From Bacteroidales bacterium (lineage in GTDB: Bacteria > Bacteroidota > Bacteroidia > Bacteroidales > UBA10428), in contig JAFGOZ010000213.1 of NCBI GenBank assembly GCA_016926235.1, positions 1-7,559 of the forward strand: a stretch of 7,559 nt of DNA, given 5' to 3'. A program made the translations under genes and the position numbers. Every line of letters starts with the position of its first letter. Positions within the stretch are counted from its first letter, which is position 1. Of this stretch, positions 410 to 6,731 are shown piece after piece. The notes under the pieces were generated by a model. That model was given only the letters and a program-made list of their open reading frames with translations, was not told the origin of the DNA and did no database searches.

Positions 410-454
410 TGAAAAAAACCAAATATGAAGTCAATTATAAAGCAGGAATTAAAC

Positions 455-766
455 ATGGATACAAGATCAAAAATCACTTTTAGAGAACTAGAGGAAAGAG
501 TCAATATTGATGAAGTGAAAGAAATTATTTCTGATTTTAAGCTTTCAGGTATGGGTAACTTCTTTACATCTGATATCATTAAAAAATATACAGGAAGTTT
601 TGAAAAAAACAGCTGTACACCGGCAGCTCATTCGTTCAATGCGAATTTTGGGAAACTACTAAAGCAGGATGAGGGCTATTTTAGAATCAAGGAGATTCGT
701 AAATCGGCTTCAACAAAAGATGATAGTGGTGAATCCACACATTCTTCTGAGGAGAGCTTTCAATAA
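455..766 (+). CDS. small probable winged-helix protein, first gene of the DUF4007 operon
   Basis: This gene encodes about 103 residues with no family I can name. I chose the ATG at 455 because AGGA (444-447) lies 7 bases before it; the in-frame ATG at 425 has no ribosome binding site. Residues 12-75 look mostly helical, and the stretch FFTSDIIKKYTGSF followed by TPAAHSFNANFGKLLK resembles a compact helix-turn-helix or winged-helix fold, with residues 56-70 as a possible recognition helix. The last 20 residues are rich in Ser, Glu and Asp and are probably disordered. It lies 114 bases before the DUF4007 gene on the same strand. A role as transcriptional regulator or small DNA-binding subunit of the system is an inference from fold and position. 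No signal peptide or membrane segment is seen. Confidence 0.7.
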   Translation: MDTRSKITFRELEERVNIDEVKEIISDFKLSGMGNFFTSDIIKKYTGSFEKNSCTPAAHSFNANFGKLLKQDEGYFRIKEIRKSASTKDDSGESTHSSEESFQ

Positions 767-880: not shown

Positions 881-1801
881 ATGAAGCACAATGTCAATAT
901 CCATGAATTTATTAACCAGGGTTCATTAGGGTCACATGAGACGTTTGTTCCAAGATTCAGTTGGTTAAAAAAAGGTTATAATCTCTTAAATGAAAACGGA
1001 CATATATTTCAGGATCCCGATGCCATTGAGAAATTGGGAGTCGGAAAAAACATGGTTCGTTCGATACGGTTCTGGTGTCTGGCATTTAAAATTGCAGAAA
1101 TTGATCCCAACACTTCCGGCACAGTTCGACCAACCAATTTAGGTCAATCATTATTAGATGATGATGGGTGGGATCCGTATTTGGAAGATTTAGCAAGCTT
1201 GTGGTTACTACACTGGCAACTATTCGTTCCTCCACTAAGTTTTGTTTCTGTGCCTTTGGCATTTAATTTTTGTTCATTACCAGAATTTTCCACTCAAGAT
1301 TTTGGTGCCTCGCTTGTACAAAACACTCTTAAGTACGATAAACTGGCAAAACTATCTGATAGCTCGAAAATGAAGGATGCATCAAGTATCATTCGAACAT
1401 ATATAAATACCAATGAAAAAACGGAGATCAGAAGTCAGTTCGAAGATTTACAACTAATCACCGGGTTGGATCATAACAACAGTTATTGTTTTAACCTGGA
1501 ACAGAAAAGCACATTACCACCGATTCTATTTTTGGCGGCCTGTTTATCATATTTATTTTACTATTATCAGTACCAGAATAGTATTTCCTTAAGCCGTCTT
1601 GTATACGATATCAACTCACCAGGTGTTGCATTTAAATTGTCGGAGACAGATTGTGGGAATTTACTTGAATCAGCAATGGGTGCCATTGAAAATATAAGCT
1701 TTATTGAAAGTACTGGTATTCGTCAACTTCAATTCCATGGAGAACCACAAGAACTCTATTGGAAATGTATTCAGGCTTATTACGGAGATTCAAAGCAATG
1801 A
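881..1801 (+). CDS. DUF4007 family protein
   Basis: This is a 306-residue soluble protein recognised as DUF4007 from its N-terminal half: GSHETFVPRFSWLKKGY (residues 17-33), then DAIEKLGVGKNMVRSIRFW (47-65), then PTNLGQSLLDDDGWDPYLED (84-103) and SLWLLHWQLF (106-115). These blocks are typical of the family, and the length fits. The molecular role is unknown. The basic GVGKNMVRSIRFW segment has a helix-turn-helix look and suggests nucleic-acid contact, which is inference; it is not a Walker A motif. From memory, DUF4007 genes occur in defence islands, often near sulfurtransferase (PAPS reductase-like) genes and large ATPases. Here the ATPase follows directly through an ATGA overlap, but no sulfurtransferase is visible. 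ATAGGT at 867-872, 8 bases before the ATG, is a modest ribosome binding site. The gene looks intact. Confidence 0.85.
   Translation: MKHNVNIHEFINQGSLGSHETFVPRFSWLKKGYNLLNENGHIFQDPDAIEKLGVGKNMVRSIRFWCLAFKIAEIDPNTSGTVRPTNLGQSLLDDDGWDPYLEDLASLWLLHWQLFVPPLSFVSVPLAFNFCSLPEFSTQDFGASLVQNTLKYDKLAKLSDSSKMKDASSIIRTYINTNEKTEIRSQFEDLQLITGLDHNNSYCFNLEQKSTLPPILFLAACLSYLFYYYQYQNSISLSRLVYDINSPGVAFKLSETDCGNLLESAMGAIENISFIESTGIRQLQFHGEPQELYWKCIQAYYGDSKQ
1784..1801 (+). promoter_or_regulatory. ribosome binding site and ATGA stop-start overlap
   Basis: GGAGA (1784-1788) lies 9 bases before the ATG at 1798, which shares bases with the TGA stop of the DUF4007 gene. This arrangement is typical of translational coupling and fixes the ATPase start at 1798 rather than at the in-frame ATG at 1759, which would create a 43-base overlap. 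Confidence 0.75.
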
Positions 1802-2535
1802 AATTGTCAAGCGTTGTTAAAATAAACTATCGTGCAGCGCGATCGGTAAATTTAGAACGGGATCAAAACGATATTGATCGTTTAAAAAATTATCAACTGA
1901 CCCAACAAGGTACTAAAATAATCAAAAGATTTGTGGAATCTCTTGAAGGTGAACCAGTTAATGCGTGGAGTTTAACTGGCCTTTATGGGATGGGTAAATC
2001 ATCATTCGCCAATTTTTTATTGAATTTGTGTAAACCGAAAAATGATATCAACCATATAACTGCAGTAAATCAGTTAAAAAAGAAGGATGGGTACCTTGCT
2101 ATTAAATATGTTGAGGTATTGGCGGCATTCGGCTCAAACGCACCGCTTTTTCCGATTTTTGTCACTGCAAAATATGAGTCTCTAAATTCTGCATTACTGT
2201 CAGGCCTATCGCAGGCACTTGATTTAGAGATAAAACATCCGCAATTTAAGGAAATCCAAAATCAGATTGATTCATCATTGCATACAGGAAAAGTGAAATC
2301 AACTGAAGTACTTACAGTTTATAAAAGAGTACAAAATATCATAGAAAAACCAATAGTACTCATTATTGATGAATTTGGAAAAATTTTAGAGTATCAGTCT
2401 CACAGACCAAAAGAAGGTGATATCTTTGCCATTCAATTATTGGCAGAATCCCATAATACCTACATCTGGCTGTGTTTACATCAAAGTTTCGACGAATATG
2501 CGATGACTCTTTCTAATAAATTAAGGAATGTGTAA
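1798..2535 (+). CDS. large defence-type P-loop ATPase, N-terminal fragment
   Basis: The 245-residue product carries a full nucleotide-binding core. The Walker A motif GLYGMGKSS is at residues 61-69 with Lys67 as the phosphate-binding lysine, and the Walker B motif IVLIIDEFGK is at 186-195 with Asp191 and Glu192. A following LHQSFDEYA block (227-235) matches the sensor-like region of very large ATPases found beside DUF4007 genes and, more loosely, those of BREX (BrxC/PglY-like) and related systems. In such proteins this block is soon followed by a conserved segment of the kind EWxKxQGRF and several hundred more residues. Here the frame ends at LRNV and that segment appears in none of the three forward frames, so this is a break and not a simple frameshift. 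The likely remainder lies at 4623-6731, beyond two unrelated genes. The fragment is probably translated, coupled to DUF4007, but its function is doubtful. Confidence 0.8.
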   Translation: MKLSSVVKINYRAARSVNLERDQNDIDRLKNYQLTQQGTKIIKRFVESLEGEPVNAWSLTGLYGMGKSSFANFLLNLCKPKNDINHITAVNQLKKKDGYLAIKYVEVLAAFGSNAPLFPIFVTAKYESLNSALLSGLSQALDLEIKHPQFKEIQNQIDSSLHTGKVKSTEVLTVYKRVQNIIEKPIVLIIDEFGKILEYQSHRPKEGDIFAIQLLAESHNTYIWLCLHQSFDEYAMTLSNKLRNV

Positions 2536-2605: not shown

Positions 2606-3682
2606 ATGGAGGACAAAAAAATATTACCTTCAGATTTACATCTGCCAATAAATTTACTTGCGTCGGTTTTTAATAGAACGACTGCGACCTATAAATATTA
2701 CTGGTTTTTGTCGATTCTGGAACTTGTAGCTCAGACACCCAACAGATTAATCTTTCCAATCAGATCAATATTAAGCCGAATGATCGGCAATGTTTGGTAT
2801 CCTGTCCATTATTATAGAATATCTTTTGGACTTGCTGACCTGTTAAGATATAATACAATAGAAATCCAAAAGCAAACCAAGCTACCCATTGATGAAGATA
2901 AGGAAAAACTATACCAGAATCTTATAAATAATACTGATCACTATGTTGTGAATTTAATAATGCATTTCGGTAAATATGTTCCATTTCGGTTTCTAAGTCC
3001 CTGGTTTCCCGGGGCAAATAACAGAGAGGTTGTTAATTTTTCATCAGATTTTAAAAACTGCTGTTTGTATAAAGTTGATATTCAGAAAGATCAAATACAA
3101 ATTAATCCTAATTGGTCTGAATATCTTGTCTCGAACAACAGAATACTAAGAGATTTCTGTTATTGGAACCTTATACTTTATCTACAGGCAAAAAATCCTA
3201 ATGTCCCTGATATTGCCAACAAACTGATAAAACCAGTAAGTCGGGAAAGCATGACACGTCAGCGCCGTTTTTGGGATACAGTATTTATGAACAGTGAATC
3301 CCCACGGTGTATTTATACAGGCAAACCGCTGTTGATTTCAGATTATGTACTGGAGCATTTCATTCCTTGGAGTTTTGTATCACATAATCTGATTTGGAAT
3401 CTTGTTCCGGTGACGCAGACCGTGAACAGTTCAAAAAGTAACCGACTACCGCAGATTGACCGCTTTCTTGAGCCGTTTGTCAACGTTCAGAAACGGGCAG
3501 TTCAGACGGTATATCGATTACGTCCGCGGGATAAGATATTAGAGGATTATTTGGTCTTGGGAGAATCCATTCCAAAGATATTAACTTTGTCAATGCTGGA
3601 ATTTCGAGAGAGGTACCGAAAATTGTTAACGCCACTTGTACAGATTGCTGAAAATATGGGTTATGAATACTGGAGAGTGTGA
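2606..3682 (+). CDS. HNH endonuclease domain protein
   Basis: The 358-residue protein has a helical N-terminal domain opening with LPINLLASVFNRTTATYKYY (residues 13-32), and a C-terminal HNH nuclease. The nuclease reads CIYTGK (235-240), EHFIPWSF (250-257), WNLVP (264-268) and NSSKSNRLP (274-282). His251 is the likely catalytic histidine, Asn265 the middle asparagine and Asn274/Lys277 the last position. The usual Asp before the His appears here as Glu250, a conservative change. Related proteins are annotated as HNH endonuclease domain-containing. They are expected to cut DNA, but the substrate is unknown. The gene is 3 bases from the methyltransferase-HIT gene, so the two form an operon. No ribosome binding site precedes ATG 2606; a strong GGAGG lies just inside the frame. 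Base composition rises from about 30% G+C (2881-2940) to 45% (3241-3300) within the gene. Confidence 0.85.
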   Translation: MEDKKILPSDLHLPINLLASVFNRTTATYKYYWFLSILELVAQTPNRLIFPIRSILSRMIGNVWYPVHYYRISFGLADLLRYNTIEIQKQTKLPIDEDKEKLYQNLINNTDHYVVNLIMHFGKYVPFRFLSPWFPGANNREVVNFSSDFKNCCLYKVDIQKDQIQINPNWSEYLVSNNRILRDFCYWNLILYLQAKNPNVPDIANKLIKPVSRESMTRQRRFWDTVFMNSESPRCIYTGKPLLISDYVLEHFIPWSFVSHNLIWNLVPVTQTVNSSKSNRLPQIDRFLEPFVNVQKRAVQTVYRLRPRDKILEDYLVLGESIPKILTLSMLEFRERYRKLLTPLVQIAENMGYEYWRV

Positions 3683-3688
3683 ATAATG
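3672..3688 (+). promoter_or_regulatory. ribosome binding site of the methyltransferase-HIT gene
   Basis: GGAGAG (3672-3677) lies inside the end of the HNH gene, 8 bases before ATG 3686 and 11 before the in-frame ATG 3689. It supports the 3686 start and translation of both genes from one message. Confidence 0.6.
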
Positions 3689-4558
3689 ATGAAGAAACCT
3701 ATAAACCATTCCCATCTGACCGCAAAGCAGCGAATGTCGCTGTCGTTTCCGGTTCGATGGCTATGGCAAAATGGTTTATTAAAAGGCCGAATACTGGACT
3801 TCGGATGTGGGTTTGGCTCTGACGTGAAATTATTGTATGAAAAGGACATGGATATTTGCGGTTATGATAAACATTTTTTTCCAGAAAAACCGAAAGGCAG
3901 ATTTGATACCATCATTTGCAGTTATGTACTGAATGTTTTACAACCTGATGAACAGCCATATGTTTTGATGGACATTTGTGAAATGCTGAATAAATCGGGC
4001 ATTGCTTACTACGTTGTGCGCCGGGATATCCTGTACGAGGGTTTCCGAATGCATAAAATTCACAAGCAGACAACCTATCAATGTAATGTACTTCTGCCAT
4101 TTAAAAGTCTTTTTATAAATAAATTTTGTGAAATTTATGAATATCGACATTACAATGTCGTTAAGAATAATAATTCGGATTGTCCCTTTTGCTGTCCTGA
4201 TGGTGAAATGGGATTGATTACAGAGACGGCAAGGACGTTCGCTGTTTTTGATAAATATCCAGTTAGTTTGGGCCACGGGCTTGTTATTCCTAAGCGGCAT
4301 GTGTCAGATTATTTTGAATTGTCGGTTTGTGAACAGAGGGCGTGCTGGATTGTGGTGAACCGGGTAAAAGAAATTCTTACGCAGGAGCATCAGCCGGATG
4401 GGTTTAATGTTGGAGTCAATGTCGGAAATGCCAGCGGGCAGACTGTCCCACATGTGCATATTCATGTGATTCCCCGATATAATTATGATGTATGTGATCC
4501 CACTGGTGGAGTGCGGAATGTGATTCCAGAGAAAGGGAATTATTTAATCATTAGTTAA
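3686..4558 (+). CDS. class I SAM-dependent methyltransferase / HIT domain fusion
   Basis: This 290-residue protein joins two enzymes. The N-terminal half is a class I methyltransferase: the SAM-binding motif ILDFGCGFGSD is at residues 36-46, an acidic residue ending strand 2 is Asp61, and motif IV reads DTIICSYVLNVL (74-85). There is no NPPY or DPPY, so it does not look like an N6-adenine or N4-cytosine DNA methylase. The C-terminal half is a HIT domain: CPFC (166-169) is a probable zinc pair, HGLVIPKRH (197-205) follows, and the histidine triad HVHIHVI (256-262) has His258 as the expected nucleophile. It ends GGVRNVIPEKGNY (274-286), usual for bacterial and archaeal HIT proteins. HIT enzymes split or transfer nucleoside monophosphates. 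Fusions of this kind are annotated in databases as bifunctional methyltransferase/HIT proteins, but I know of no established substrate. The gene follows the HNH gene by 3 bases and is more G+C-rich than the ATPase fragments. Confidence 0.9.
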   Translation: MMKKPINHSHLTAKQRMSLSFPVRWLWQNGLLKGRILDFGCGFGSDVKLLYEKDMDICGYDKHFFPEKPKGRFDTIICSYVLNVLQPDEQPYVLMDICEMLNKSGIAYYVVRRDILYEGFRMHKIHKQTTYQCNVLLPFKSLFINKFCEIYEYRHYNVVKNNNSDCPFCCPDGEMGLITETARTFAVFDKYPVSLGHGLVIPKRHVSDYFELSVCEQRACWIVVNRVKEILTQEHQPDGFNVGVNVGNASGQTVPHVHIHVIPRYNYDVCDPTGGVRNVIPEKGNYLIIS

Positions 4559-4622
4559 AACAATTTCCAAAATAACTGATTATAAACACAATATTACTTA
4601 ACATATAAGATGAAGAAATTAA
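4559..4622. other. right junction between the cassette and the ATPase fragment
   Basis: AT-rich spacer with no gene, no hairpin with a T run, and no copy of the left-junction sequence that I can see. The frame of the downstream ATPase fragment opens just after a TAA at 4620-4622, so the breakpoint probably lies close to here. Confidence 0.35.
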
Positions 4623-4748
4623 TACCTTTTTTGTGATTGTCTTTTTGGCCATATTGATAAGCAAGAAAGTGCAAAATACGGCAATCATTTACTTAATTAT
4701 AAGTCCAAAATTAAAGATCAAATTGATCAAGTTTCCAATCGATTAATT
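4623..4748 (+). pseudogene. upstream coding extension of the ATPase C-terminal fragment
   Basis: This stretch is in frame with the fragment starting at 4749 and has no stop. It translates as YLFCDCLFGHIDKQESAKYG followed by NHLLNYKSKIKDQIDQVSNR and LI, running into VERHYISF. It has no ATG, and the protein-like pattern (a helix with alternating charge) suggests the coding sequence was once continuous with sequence now missing to the left. Confidence 0.45.
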
Positions 4749-6731
4749 GTGGAAAGACATTACATAAGTTTTAGTGATATTCAACTTCAATCAGTGAGAA
4801 TAAAAGATGCGACAAAATCCATTTTCTCACAATTATATACATCACCAATTTCTTTCCCGTTCGATGGATTTCATACATCAAAAGGGAATGCTGCTGCAGA
4901 TTGTAAACTTTTTATTGTAAACCTTATAAAAGGACAATTTAGTCATAGCTGGTATACATCTCAACATATTAGGATGAAAAACCGTGCAGATACTGTTTTA
5001 AGTAAGAAATGGAAAGTATTATCTCGTGATGGTTCGGTTGCGTTTAAACCACAAAATGAATTAATAAGTTCAATTGTAAGTGATATAGAAACACAAATAA
5101 AATCTGGAAAAAACATAAATCTTGCAGATTTATTTTCCCAATACTGTCTTCCTCCGTATACAGGAAATATTGCCTCAATTGGATTAATATTGGGAGTTTA
5201 TTGCGCCCCTAGACATGAATCTTTATCTATCATATTCAATGGTCAATTAATAACATTATCTCAATGGCTTAAAGAAGCATTTAAGGGAAATTATCTCGAT
5301 TTAGAAGTATTAAAAAAATCACATCTTCACCAATTAATTGAAGGACCAAGTGATGGGTGGAAATACCTTTTAGAGGAGTGGAAAAAAGTTACTACTCATG
5401 TTGAGATTGTGAATTATTTTCATAAATCAAAAGCACTCGAATTAACAAATCCTGTTCCTAGTAGTCTATTTTATTTGTTGGAAAGTTTACGGAAAGATGC
5501 AGAATATTCAGAAAACACTCTTAATAATTTAAAAATTGTCGAAGTTCAACACACTGAAAAATTAGAGAAGGGAATTAGTGATAAGGATATTTGTAATATT
5601 AGTTGGGCAGGTGCAGATTTTGTAAAATTAAAGCTGAAGTTGCAGGCAAAGCTTGAGAAATGGACAGAAGAACAAATCCATAAATATGATAATGATATTG
5701 AAAAGGCACGATTAAATATAATGGATTTATTTCCATTGTGGTTAAAAAACATAAAACCCTTTGGCACCAATCCAAGCGATTTATCTCAATTTGATTATAA
5801 AATGGCAAAAGTAATTGAAAATCTTGAAAAATTGGATATGGAATCTGAAAAAAATGAATTGCAAATCCAAAAGGATAAAATTGTAAAGGGGTATCAGCGT
5901 TATCAGGCATTGCATGGCTTACTTGAAGAAACAGGAGCCTGGCTTAAAAGACACGAATCCGGAGTTCCAATATCAAGAATTATTGAATTAACAATGTTAA
6001 TAGAAGAAATAAATCAATATGAATCGAAGTTAAATGAATATAAAATATTAGTTAAATCTGAGGATATCGATAATGCCTTGAGCAGGTTTTCCAAACTTAA
6101 AGAGCAATATTTGACTAGAAAACAGGATTTTATGAGTCAGGCCAGCAAAATATATGATGATAATTTTATTATTAAAAACGGGCTCGCTATCGCAGTAGAA
6201 ACAATAGAATCACTAAAAATTACTTTCCAAGGATCTGACCAAGATTCCGAAGATTTTGAAGACTTCTTAACCGAATTAGGCCATATCAAAGATTTGCTTT
6301 CACTCATAGATAGCTTACAATTAAGCTGGAAGGATTTTGATACTAAAATAAAAGTGTTCATTGATAAAAATAAACTAGCCTGGGAAAACAAAGATATTCC
6401 ATGGTCACTTGAAGAGATTATTAATAGTGAAAAACAATCAATCATTCAAAAAAGAAATAAACAAAGTAAATTATGGAAAAATGAATTAATTAAAGAATCC
6501 AAGTTACTTGAGGAATTAAATACTAGCCAATTGAACAATTTATTGGATAAAATAAATACTCTACCGCCATATGTTACTAATGACGATGGTGACGAATTAA
6601 AGGCTTTGAGACCGAAAGTGGTTGAAATGCTAAATACTAAAAAGGTAGATTGGCTACTTGAAGTATTTAGTGGATTGTCTAAAGATATACAAAAAACTGT
6701 TTATAAGAAATTAAGTGATATGATTAAATAA
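4749..6731 (+). CDS. large defence-type ATPase, C-terminal fragment
   Basis: From the GTG at 4749 the product has 660 residues, but the frame is open from 4623 and the extra residues (GHIDKQESAKYGNHLLNYKS onward) also look like real protein, so the start is arbitrary. No ribosome binding site precedes the GTG. The blocks FPFDGFHTSKGNAAAD (residues 36-51) and CLPPYTGNIASIGLILG (133-149) match, to my reading, the post-ATPase region of large P-loop proteins of DUF4007-type and related defence systems. There is no Walker motif. Residues 290-470 are strongly helical and charged, with coiled-coil character. It therefore fits as the C-terminal part of the ATPase whose N-terminal 245 residues are at 1798-2535, cut off by the HNH/methyltransferase-HIT pair. 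The two frames differ and a middle segment seems lost, so a joined protein cannot be made. It is likely a pseudogene half; a separate subunit is the less likely alternative. Confidence 0.7.
   Translation: MERHYISFSDIQLQSVRIKDATKSIFSQLYTSPISFPFDGFHTSKGNAAADCKLFIVNLIKGQFSHSWYTSQHIRMKNRADTVLSKKWKVLSRDGSVAFKPQNELISSIVSDIETQIKSGKNINLADLFSQYCLPPYTGNIASIGLILGVYCAPRHESLSIIFNGQLITLSQWLKEAFKGNYLDLEVLKKSHLHQLIEGPSDGWKYLLEEWKKVTTHVEIVNYFHKSKALELTNPVPSSLFYLLESLRKDAEYSENTLNNLKIVEVQHTEKLEKGISDKDICNISWAGADFVKLKLKLQAKLEKWTEEQIHKYDNDIEKARLNIMDLFPLWLKNIKPFGTNPSDLSQFDYKMAKVIENLEKLDMESEKNELQIQKDKIVKGYQRYQALHGLLEETGAWLKRHESGVPISRIIELTMLIEEINQYESKLNEYKILVKSEDIDNALSRFSKLKEQYLTRKQDFMSQASKIYDDNFIIKNGLAIAVETIESLKITFQGSDQDSEDFEDFLTELGHIKDLLSLIDSLQLSWKDFDTKIKVFIDKNKLAWENKDIPWSLEEIINSEKQSIIQKRNKQSKLWKNELIKESKLLEELNTSQLNNLLDKINTLPPYVTNDDGDELKALRPKVVEMLNTKKVDWLLEVFSGLSKDIQKTVYKKLSDMIK

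What the first reader, a model, noticed from the sequence alone, without database searches (positions are those of the whole stretch)
2606..4558. HNH nuclease plus methyltransferase-HIT pair as a candidate undescribed defence or conflict module
The two genes are 3 bases apart, share a message, and sit together inside another system's gene as a mobile unit would. A nuclease paired with a methyltransferase suggests modification and restriction, but the methyltransferase lacks a DNA amino-methylase motif IV and carries a HIT domain that acts on nucleotides. That hints at chemistry on a nucleotide, a nucleotide-linked signal or a hypermodified base.
Basis: partly seen in the sequence, partly recalled or inferred. 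Interest (0 to 1): 0.72.

Follow-up and report, generated by a model that had tools for sequence, protein, structure and literature searches.

The report
Nuclease and methyltransferase-HIT gene pair
Two neighbouring bacterial genes, a DNA-cutting enzyme and a two-part enzyme that probably acts on nucleotides, form a recurring defence-type pair that looks like an offshoot of sulfur-based DNA modification systems rather than a stray insert.

Summary
The two genes are real: an HNH_4 nuclease (2606-3682) and a class I methyltransferase fused to a HIT domain of the Fhit/Hint branch (3686-4558), 3 bases apart, with conserved active-site residues. In 395 genomes drawn from the phylum of a Bacteroidales genome, 17 have full-length methyltransferase-HIT, and 17 of 17 have an HNH nuclease directly upstream: 8 close to the window's nuclease, 8 weakly similar, 1 an SBD-HNH, a sulfur-reading type. 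Flanking genes are rich in defence families.

The 'mobile unit inside another gene' reading is not supported: the upstream gene is a truncated sspC, but the downstream ORF is not detectably sspC. This HNH family is a regular gene of Ssp phosphorothioation loci: sspB, sspC, HNH, sspD in three cyanobacterial loci; sspB, short sspC, HNH, methyltransferase-HIT in G279, the window's own gene order. Best account: a restriction-effector module of phosphorothioate descent, now mostly without modification genes nearby, with the methyltransferase-HIT as a nucleotide-acting control part. The lineage is supported; the chemistry is inferred. My paper searches did not show this pair. A new variant of a known kind.

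The parts
881..1801 (+). sspB-like gene (DUF4007), 306 aa, full length
   Evidence: Pfam DUF4007 251.8 bits over 3-288/288; PADLOC SspB E 2.8e-85
1798..2535 (+). truncated sspC-like ATPase gene, 245 aa, ATG start overlapping the sspB stop (ATGA); N-terminal P-loop part only
   Evidence: PADLOC SspC E 1.3e-55 to profile positions 2-233 of 1104 (with the longer ORF from 1759); positions 3-195 of 1081 in a local profile, no other significant SspC match in six frames of the window
2606..3682 (+). HNH_4 nuclease, 358 aa: helical N-terminal domain (about 1-210, with Tyr29-Lys30 of a TYK motif) and a Cas9-like HNH domain (about 214-352)
3686..4558 (+). class I methyltransferase (about 8-156) fused to a HIT domain (about 163-280), 290 aa
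4626..6731 (+). orphan open frame (701 codons; first start codon at 4749), no detectable relation to SspC; possibly a 5'-truncated gene

Best explanation
The pair is a restriction-effector module that descends from Ssp-type phosphorothioate (PT) defence operons. Shown by sequence: this HNH family is a regular gene of Ssp loci, lying after sspC and before sspD or next to sspA; in Bacteroidota it is usually coupled to a methyltransferase-HIT protein; most such pairs have no PT genes nearby and many lie among defence genes; the window holds an Ssp operon whose sspC is truncated while the pair is intact. Inferred: the HNH protein nicks or cuts invading DNA, gated by its N-terminal domain. Also inferred: the methyltransferase-HIT protein is the control part. 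Its HIT domain removes a nucleotidyl (AMP-type) group from a small molecule, protein or DNA end, its methyltransferase acts on the same nucleotide-linked substrate, and together they keep the nuclease off or license it. A constant methyltransferase-HIT with exchangeable HNH partners fits a control part serving interchangeable nucleases.
Against: Most pairs have no PT genes nearby: 31 of 39 loci with HNH lack DUF4007, SspC and SspD-type genes. Of the other 8, five hold only fragments (L009, L014, L018, L021, L063); L011, L056 and L062 hold full-length ones. SspC was found in 5 of 17 HNH-bearing genomes searched, one of them only at E 5.8e-4. One of the 4 DUF4007 co-occurrences (G123) and two of the 8 (G430, G522) are on other contigs, and G035 and G430 have only fragments. 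L003, L278 and L285 lie beside atpG, not in a defence island. Of 11 strong-HNH genomes in the draw, 3 lack the partner (G033, G092, G261). All 27 cyanobacterial methyltransferase-HIT loci lack an HNH neighbour. No activity was measured; the N-terminal domain shows only a weak SBD hint.
Confidence: 0.55

Rival explanations
1. A toxin-antidote pair: the HNH nuclease is a self-harming toxin, and the methyltransferase-HIT reverses a nucleotide adduct or destroys a nucleotide signal, unrelated to PT except by sharing defence islands.
For: Fixed order with close spacing (-16 to +25 bases in 36 loci); HIT-only partners beside HNH genes matching the profile at 26-58 bits in L064, L065, L066, L377, L378 and L379; a HIT protein, ThsC, accompanies 2.4% of Thoeris systems and was proposed as an off-switch (PMC8565338, passages read).
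Against: HNH occurs without the partner in Ssp or Dnd loci (L198, L274, L276), and the partner occurs without an HNH neighbour in cyanobacteria.
Confidence: 0.18
2. A mobile or homing-type element: the HNH gene drives its own insertion into defence genes and carries the methyltransferase-HIT along.
For: Truncated sspB or sspC genes upstream at different points; somewhat higher GC at third positions than the flanks; one site occupied by different HNH types.
Against: No repeats of 12 bases or more at the borders; the rest of the broken gene was not found downstream in the window nor, for sspB, in the 10 kb held downstream in L009 and L021 (L014 held 0.9 kb and L018 0.3 kb, too little to say); truncation points differ, so no fixed target site; a regular operon order elsewhere.
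Confidence: 0.1
3. A classical restriction-modification pair in which the methyltransferase marks host DNA.
For: Nuclease next to a methyltransferase; defence surroundings.
Confidence: 0.06
4. The methyltransferase-HIT is a housekeeping nucleotide enzyme and the HNH neighbour is an incidental defence gene.
For: All 27 cyanobacterial loci lack an HNH neighbour; 384 of 395 genomes match the A1 profile, in the rows listed mostly by the HIT part alone.
Against: 17 of 17 pairing in the draw of 395, with close spacing, diverse surroundings and different HNH types. In cyanobacteria the two co-occur in trans in 7 of 16 against 13 of 159 genomes (p 5e-4; not corrected for relatedness or genome size). 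The methyltransferase-HIT was inferred from short TIGR04096 matches; the 7 were all confirmed as full length, of the 13 I checked 5.
Confidence: 0.11

Closest known systems
Ssp phosphorothioation system (SspABCD-SspE)
   Same: Window has SspB and an SspC N-terminal part directly upstream; this HNH family lies in sspB, sspC, HNH, sspD loci elsewhere
   Different: The nuclease is HNH_4 with a helical N-terminus, not SspE (DUF262 + DUF1524 as described in PMC9646914, passages read); a methyltransferase-HIT is added; sspC is truncated and sspA/sspD are not in the window
HNH nucleases already noted in Dnd and BREX neighbourhoods
   Same: PMC10853773 reports HNH nucleases among Dnd modification genes, and PMC12839542 reports HNH nucleases, stand-alone ones included, as auxiliary effectors of BREX, whose type 4 shares SspB-, SspC- and SspD-like parts (passages read); some of these could be this family, as supplements were not read
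   Different: The passages I saw name no methyltransferase-HIT partner; the HNH of Dnd loci described there has wHTH and SAD(SRA) domains
SBD-HNH phosphorothioate-reading restriction endonucleases (ScoMcrA type)
   Same: One methyltransferase-HIT (G294) is partnered with an SBD-HNH; the TYK helix of our HNH aligns weakly with the aPhKPlLLL helix of SBD
   Different: Domain match for our HNH is only hhalign E 0.013, probability 3.3%; HNH_4 instead of HNH_2
Thoeris type II ThsC (HIT protein)
   Same: HIT-domain protein added to a defence system; ThsC profile matches at 41.8 bits
   Different: No ThsA or ThsB match among the seven window ORFs scanned; here the HIT domain is fused to a methyltransferase and paired with a nuclease
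TIGR04096 DNA phosphorothioation-associated putative methyltransferase
   Same: Shares about 80 residues around motif I (55.8 bits); in cyanobacteria TIGR04096 co-occurs with DUF4007 (21 of 25 DUF4007 genomes against 41 of 150 others)
   Different: Far below the family cut-off of 150 bits, no match beyond the N-terminus; 41 of 62 genomes with TIGR04096 have no DUF4007, and the two lie within 10 kb only in G499, G539 and G576
Cas9 HNH domain

Membership tests
Ssp system | SspB (DUF4007) gene | tested here: met
Ssp system | full-length SspC ATPase | tested here: not met
   only profile positions 3-195 of 1081 present in the window
Ssp system | SspD (PAPS-reductase type) | tested here: inconclusive
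   no significant match in the window (best E 0.051), but the window ends 0.8 kb after the last large ORF and no genome is held
Ssp system | SspA cysteine desulfurase | tested here: inconclusive
   no match in the window (best E 2.7); the gene can lie elsewhere in a genome
Ssp system | SspE effector (DUF262 + DUF1524) | tested here: not met
   window HNH matches HNH_4 only in Pfam; no SspE match among seven window ORFs
SBD-HNH PT-dependent restriction enzyme | HNH nuclease domain with conserved active-site residues | tested here: met
SBD-HNH PT-dependent restriction enzyme | sulfur-binding domain | tested here: inconclusive
   hhalign E 0.013 and 0.016 (probability about 3%) for two HNH sub-families against 0.18 and 0.27 for a reversed control
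Type II restriction-modification | DNA methyltransferase with (D/N)PP(Y/F) or C5 motifs | tested here: not met
   motif absent in 43 aligned homologues; no DNA_methylase match
Homing or mobile element | precise insertion with both halves of the target present | tested here: not met
   downstream ORF is not detectably the rest of sspC
Homing or mobile element | terminal repeats or known intron structure | tested here: inconclusive
   no repeats of 12 bases or more at the borders, no Rfam match at gathering scores; shorter duplications not tested
HIT superfamily, Fhit/Hint branch | histidine triad HxHxH and HIT fold | tested here: met
HIT superfamily, Fhit/Hint branch | nucleotidyl hydrolase or transferase activity | not testable with these tools
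   needs enzyme assay
TIGR04096 methyltransferase | score over 150 bits | tested here: not met
   55.8 bits, positions 4-83 of 478
Thoeris type II | ThsA and ThsB alongside ThsC | tested here: not met
   no ThsA or ThsB match among seven window ORFs

The most novel reading that the evidence does not exclude
A nucleotide-operated restriction switch: one conserved methyltransferase-HIT protein controls interchangeable HNH nucleases, of which some read phosphorothioate DNA, by adding or removing a methylated or adenylylated nucleotide group. The Ssp systems of cyanobacteria and Bacteroidota would then use an HNH effector other than SspE, and the pair would be a PT-independent descendant.
Probability: 0.25. 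Interest if true: 0.78.

Novelty: new variant of a known kind. Interest (0 to 1): 0.55.

Why it matters
If right, it adds a nuclease family to Ssp operons, explains a recurring but unnamed two-gene cassette in Bacteroidota, and gives a testable case of a Fhit/Hint-type enzyme working in immunity. It would open the question of which nucleotide substrate a defence HIT domain acts on, already raised by ThsC of Thoeris.

Tried and rejected
Site-specific homing into sspB: L009 and L021 truncate DUF4007 close together, which first looked like a fixed target, but L175 merely ran off the fetched stretch and L011, L014 and L018 truncate elsewhere. The reading 'one sspC gene split by the pair' was tested with an SspC profile and hhalign and dropped. 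I do not lean on the TIGR04096 name for a PT link: in 175 cyanobacterial genomes it is in 62 (61 over the cut-off). It does co-occur with DUF4007 (21 of 25 against 41 of 150, p 1e-7), but the p value takes no account of relatedness or genome size and the two are seldom close. Viral carriage: of the IMG/VR scans, the A1 matches listed cover the HIT part, at most residues 146-290, and the A2 scan gave two distant matches; phage records gave one match at 24%.

Weaknesses of counts. Genome searches score only the best few candidates per genome (5 to 11), so matches can be missed. One methyltransferase-HIT of the 17 (G207) has an internal TGA in the match, and one HNH of the 36 (L019) is split in two ORFs. 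The PADLOC comparison counts families, not genes, and many models hit one gene; genes were picked as longest ORFs, so some are spurious (L280:8498-9418 lies over the methyltransferase-HIT on the other strand). I gave it 104 of 111 flank genes and 104 of 139 control genes, dropping 7 and 35 to keep the sets equal and under the residue limit. Control regions were placed by hand on long contigs of pair genomes and are not cyanobacterial. 'Strong' HNH (133 bits or more) is my own cut. Genomes in a draw are related, so the Fisher p values are optimistic. In one search the 28 loci without HNH include L061. The HNH tree used 59 rows at 180 bits or more; divergent HNH types were left out, its labels count fragments as PT links, and midpoint rooting says nothing on direction. 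L014 and L272 carry the same 112-aa and 68-aa ORFs and are probably close relatives.

Literature: ten searches of the open PMC library did not show a paper on an HNH plus methyltransferase-HIT pair; several listings were capped. I read passages only of PMC12839542, PMC10853773, PMC8565338, PMC8704414 and PMC9646914; supplements and most subscription journals were not searched.

Full report

Is it a pair? Mostly yes. A scan of species genomes kept 80 loci of 550 that encode a relative. Of 64 with full-length methyltransferase-HIT, 36 have an HNH gene matching the profile directly upstream, at -16 to +25 bases by profile borders (30 strongly, 6 at 38-58 bits); the 28 without are 27 cyanobacterial loci and L061. 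To avoid picking, 395 genomes were drawn evenly from the phylum of L001's genome (a Bacteroidales MAG). Seventeen have full-length methyltransferase-HIT. Sixteen of them have the HNH profile directly upstream, 8 strongly and 8 at 37-54 bits. The last, G294, has a 305-aa gene 3 bases upstream with HNH_2 (44.9 bits) and an N-terminal match to the sulfur-binding domain SBDHga (8h0l, E 2.3e-7); its best plasmid relative (32.7% identity) sits beside dndB, dndE and dndD. HIT-only proteins also sit next to HNH genes with weak profile matches (L064-L066; L377-L379). L003 and L278 share both neighbours at an atpG-flanking site but carry HNH genes of two types (45 and 404 bits) beside similar methyltransferase-HIT genes; L285 (44 bits) shares the atpG side only (ATP synthase confirmed by Pfam in L278). 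So the methyltransferase-HIT is the more constant partner and the nuclease is exchanged. Against this, 3 of 11 genomes of the draw with a strong HNH lack the partner (G033, G092, G261).

Where does it live? Flank genes of 16 pair genomes matched 170 PADLOC families at E<=1e-10, against 8 families for equally many control genes. Examples: Wadjet JetA (DUF3375) and JetC downstream of the pair in L004, and a C5 methylase with Vsr in L287. Exceptions are the ATP-synthase neighbours L003, L278 and L285.

Phosphorothioate descent. On plasmids, full-length HNH relatives (28-35% identity) lie with a cysteine desulfurase (sspA), sspB, an SspC-like gene and a PAPS reductase in Hymenobacter, with a cysteine desulfurase in Leptolyngbya, and with sspB, a truncated SspC and a cysteine desulfurase in Synechocystis pSYSM; those of Allochromatium, Sinorhizobium, Calothrix and Nostoc CENA543 show no such genes in the stretch seen. 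In 175 cyanobacterial genomes the HNH (133 bits or more) is in 16, of which 8 have DUF4007 (25 of 175 overall; p 3.5e-4), 6 of them on the same contig within 8 kb. In the other draw it is 4 of 11 against 25 of 395 (p 0.003), adjacent in G035, G261 and G279 but on another contig in G123. Of 18 cyanobacterial HNH regions fetched, 9 carry DUF4007, SspC or SspD-type genes, against 0 of 28 methyltransferase-HIT loci without HNH and 0 of 20 controls. L352, L355 and L356 read sspB, sspC (in two ORFs), HNH, sspD, with two other ORFs before HNH in L355; in L356 the SspC half and SspD were confirmed by PADLOC. G279 reads sspB, a 673-aa SspC, HNH, methyltransferase-HIT, with overlaps or a 4-base gap between successive genes. 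This is the window's gene order with a longer sspC. In L009, L014, L018, L021 and L272 a 5' piece of sspB is left within 0.4 kb upstream of the pair, and L011 has a longer piece further up. Most pairs, however, have no PT genes nearby (31 of 39), and five of the other eight hold fragments only.

What the window is not. The orphan frame downstream is not detectably SspC (hmmsearch E 0.05, hhalign probability 0.4% against 99.3% for the upstream part), and a search of 5.8 billion proteins found only itself. With no border repeats of 12 bases or more, no Rfam hit and a regular operon order elsewhere, the 'mobile unit inside a gene' reading is dropped; a broken Ssp operon with an intact pair is simpler.

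How it may work. The HNH part should cut or nick DNA (inferred from fold and residues). Its N-terminal domain carries a TYK motif, identical in 59 of 59 at Tyr29 and Lys30, that aligns in place with the aPhKPlLLL helix of SBD in two separate profile comparisons, but weakly (E 0.013 and 0.016, probability about 3%, against 0.18 and 0.27 for reversed controls): a lead, not a finding. The HIT domain carries GQTVPHVHIH, which I recall as the active-site pattern of Fhit. Fhit enzymes act on adenosine phosphoramidate and adenylylsulfate (PMC8704414, passages). Removing a nucleotide group from a signal, a protein or a DNA intermediate is therefore plausible, but which one is open. ThsC of Thoeris, also a HIT protein, was proposed as an off-switch (PMC8565338, passages).

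Tree. Among 59 HNH sequences, PT-linked genes occur in a mostly cyanobacterial clade (10 of 17), in a clade with Hymenobacter, G261, G092, G279 and G202 (4 of 5), and scattered (7 of 34) in the pair clade that holds the window; fragments count as links here. The tree is drawn with a midpoint root, so it cannot fix the direction from Ssp operon to stand-alone pair.

Prior work. Passages of PMC10853773 and PMC12839542 already name HNH nucleases in Dnd and BREX neighbourhoods, so the link of some HNH to PT loci is not new in kind; the methyltransferase-HIT partner and this HNH family's place in Ssp operons I did not find described.

Verdict. The pair and its defence-type setting are sound; the lineage from PT systems is supported; the biochemical role is inferred. 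I rate it a new variant of a known kind.

Noticed in passing
window 4626-6731: Orphan coil-rich open frame of 701 codons without homologues in the protein search; the frame is open for 41 codons before its first start codon, so it may be 5'-truncated.
   Followed up: partly
window 425-766: 113-aa ORF upstream of sspB with no family match beyond a weak PADLOC PDC-M26B hit (E 0.009).
   Followed up: no
L352, L355, L356: Cyanobacterial sspC is split into two ORFs near profile position 700, in three genomes.
   Followed up: partly
L356:11735-15266: A protein with a DndB domain (786 aa) followed by a BrxL gene downstream of sspB, sspC, HNH and sspD: PT and BREX parts side by side.
   Followed up: partly
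L196 (Synechocystis pSYSM) 4423-5379: A gene annotated LAGLIDADG endonuclease lies on the other strand between a truncated sspC and the HNH gene.
   Followed up: no
L061:9995-11098, L052, L055, L057: Methyltransferase-HIT proteins of Bacteroidales with C-terminal extensions of about 75-80 residues; that of L061 ends in an HTH-like stretch (by eye) and L061 has no HNH neighbour.
   Followed up: no
cyanobacterial genomes G430, G448, G462, G497, G525, G551, G580: Methyltransferase-HIT and HNH occur in the same genome at different places, more often than expected (7 of 16 against 13 of 159).
   Followed up: partly
cyanobacterial draw of 175 genomes: TIGR04096 methyltransferases co-occur with DUF4007: 21 of 25 DUF4007 genomes against 41 of 150 others; close together in G499, G539 and G576.
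   Followed up: partly
L276 (G092): HNH without methyltransferase-HIT beside DndC, a PbeC/DndD-type ATPase and two DUF262-like genes (one by PADLOC, one by eye).
   Followed up: partly
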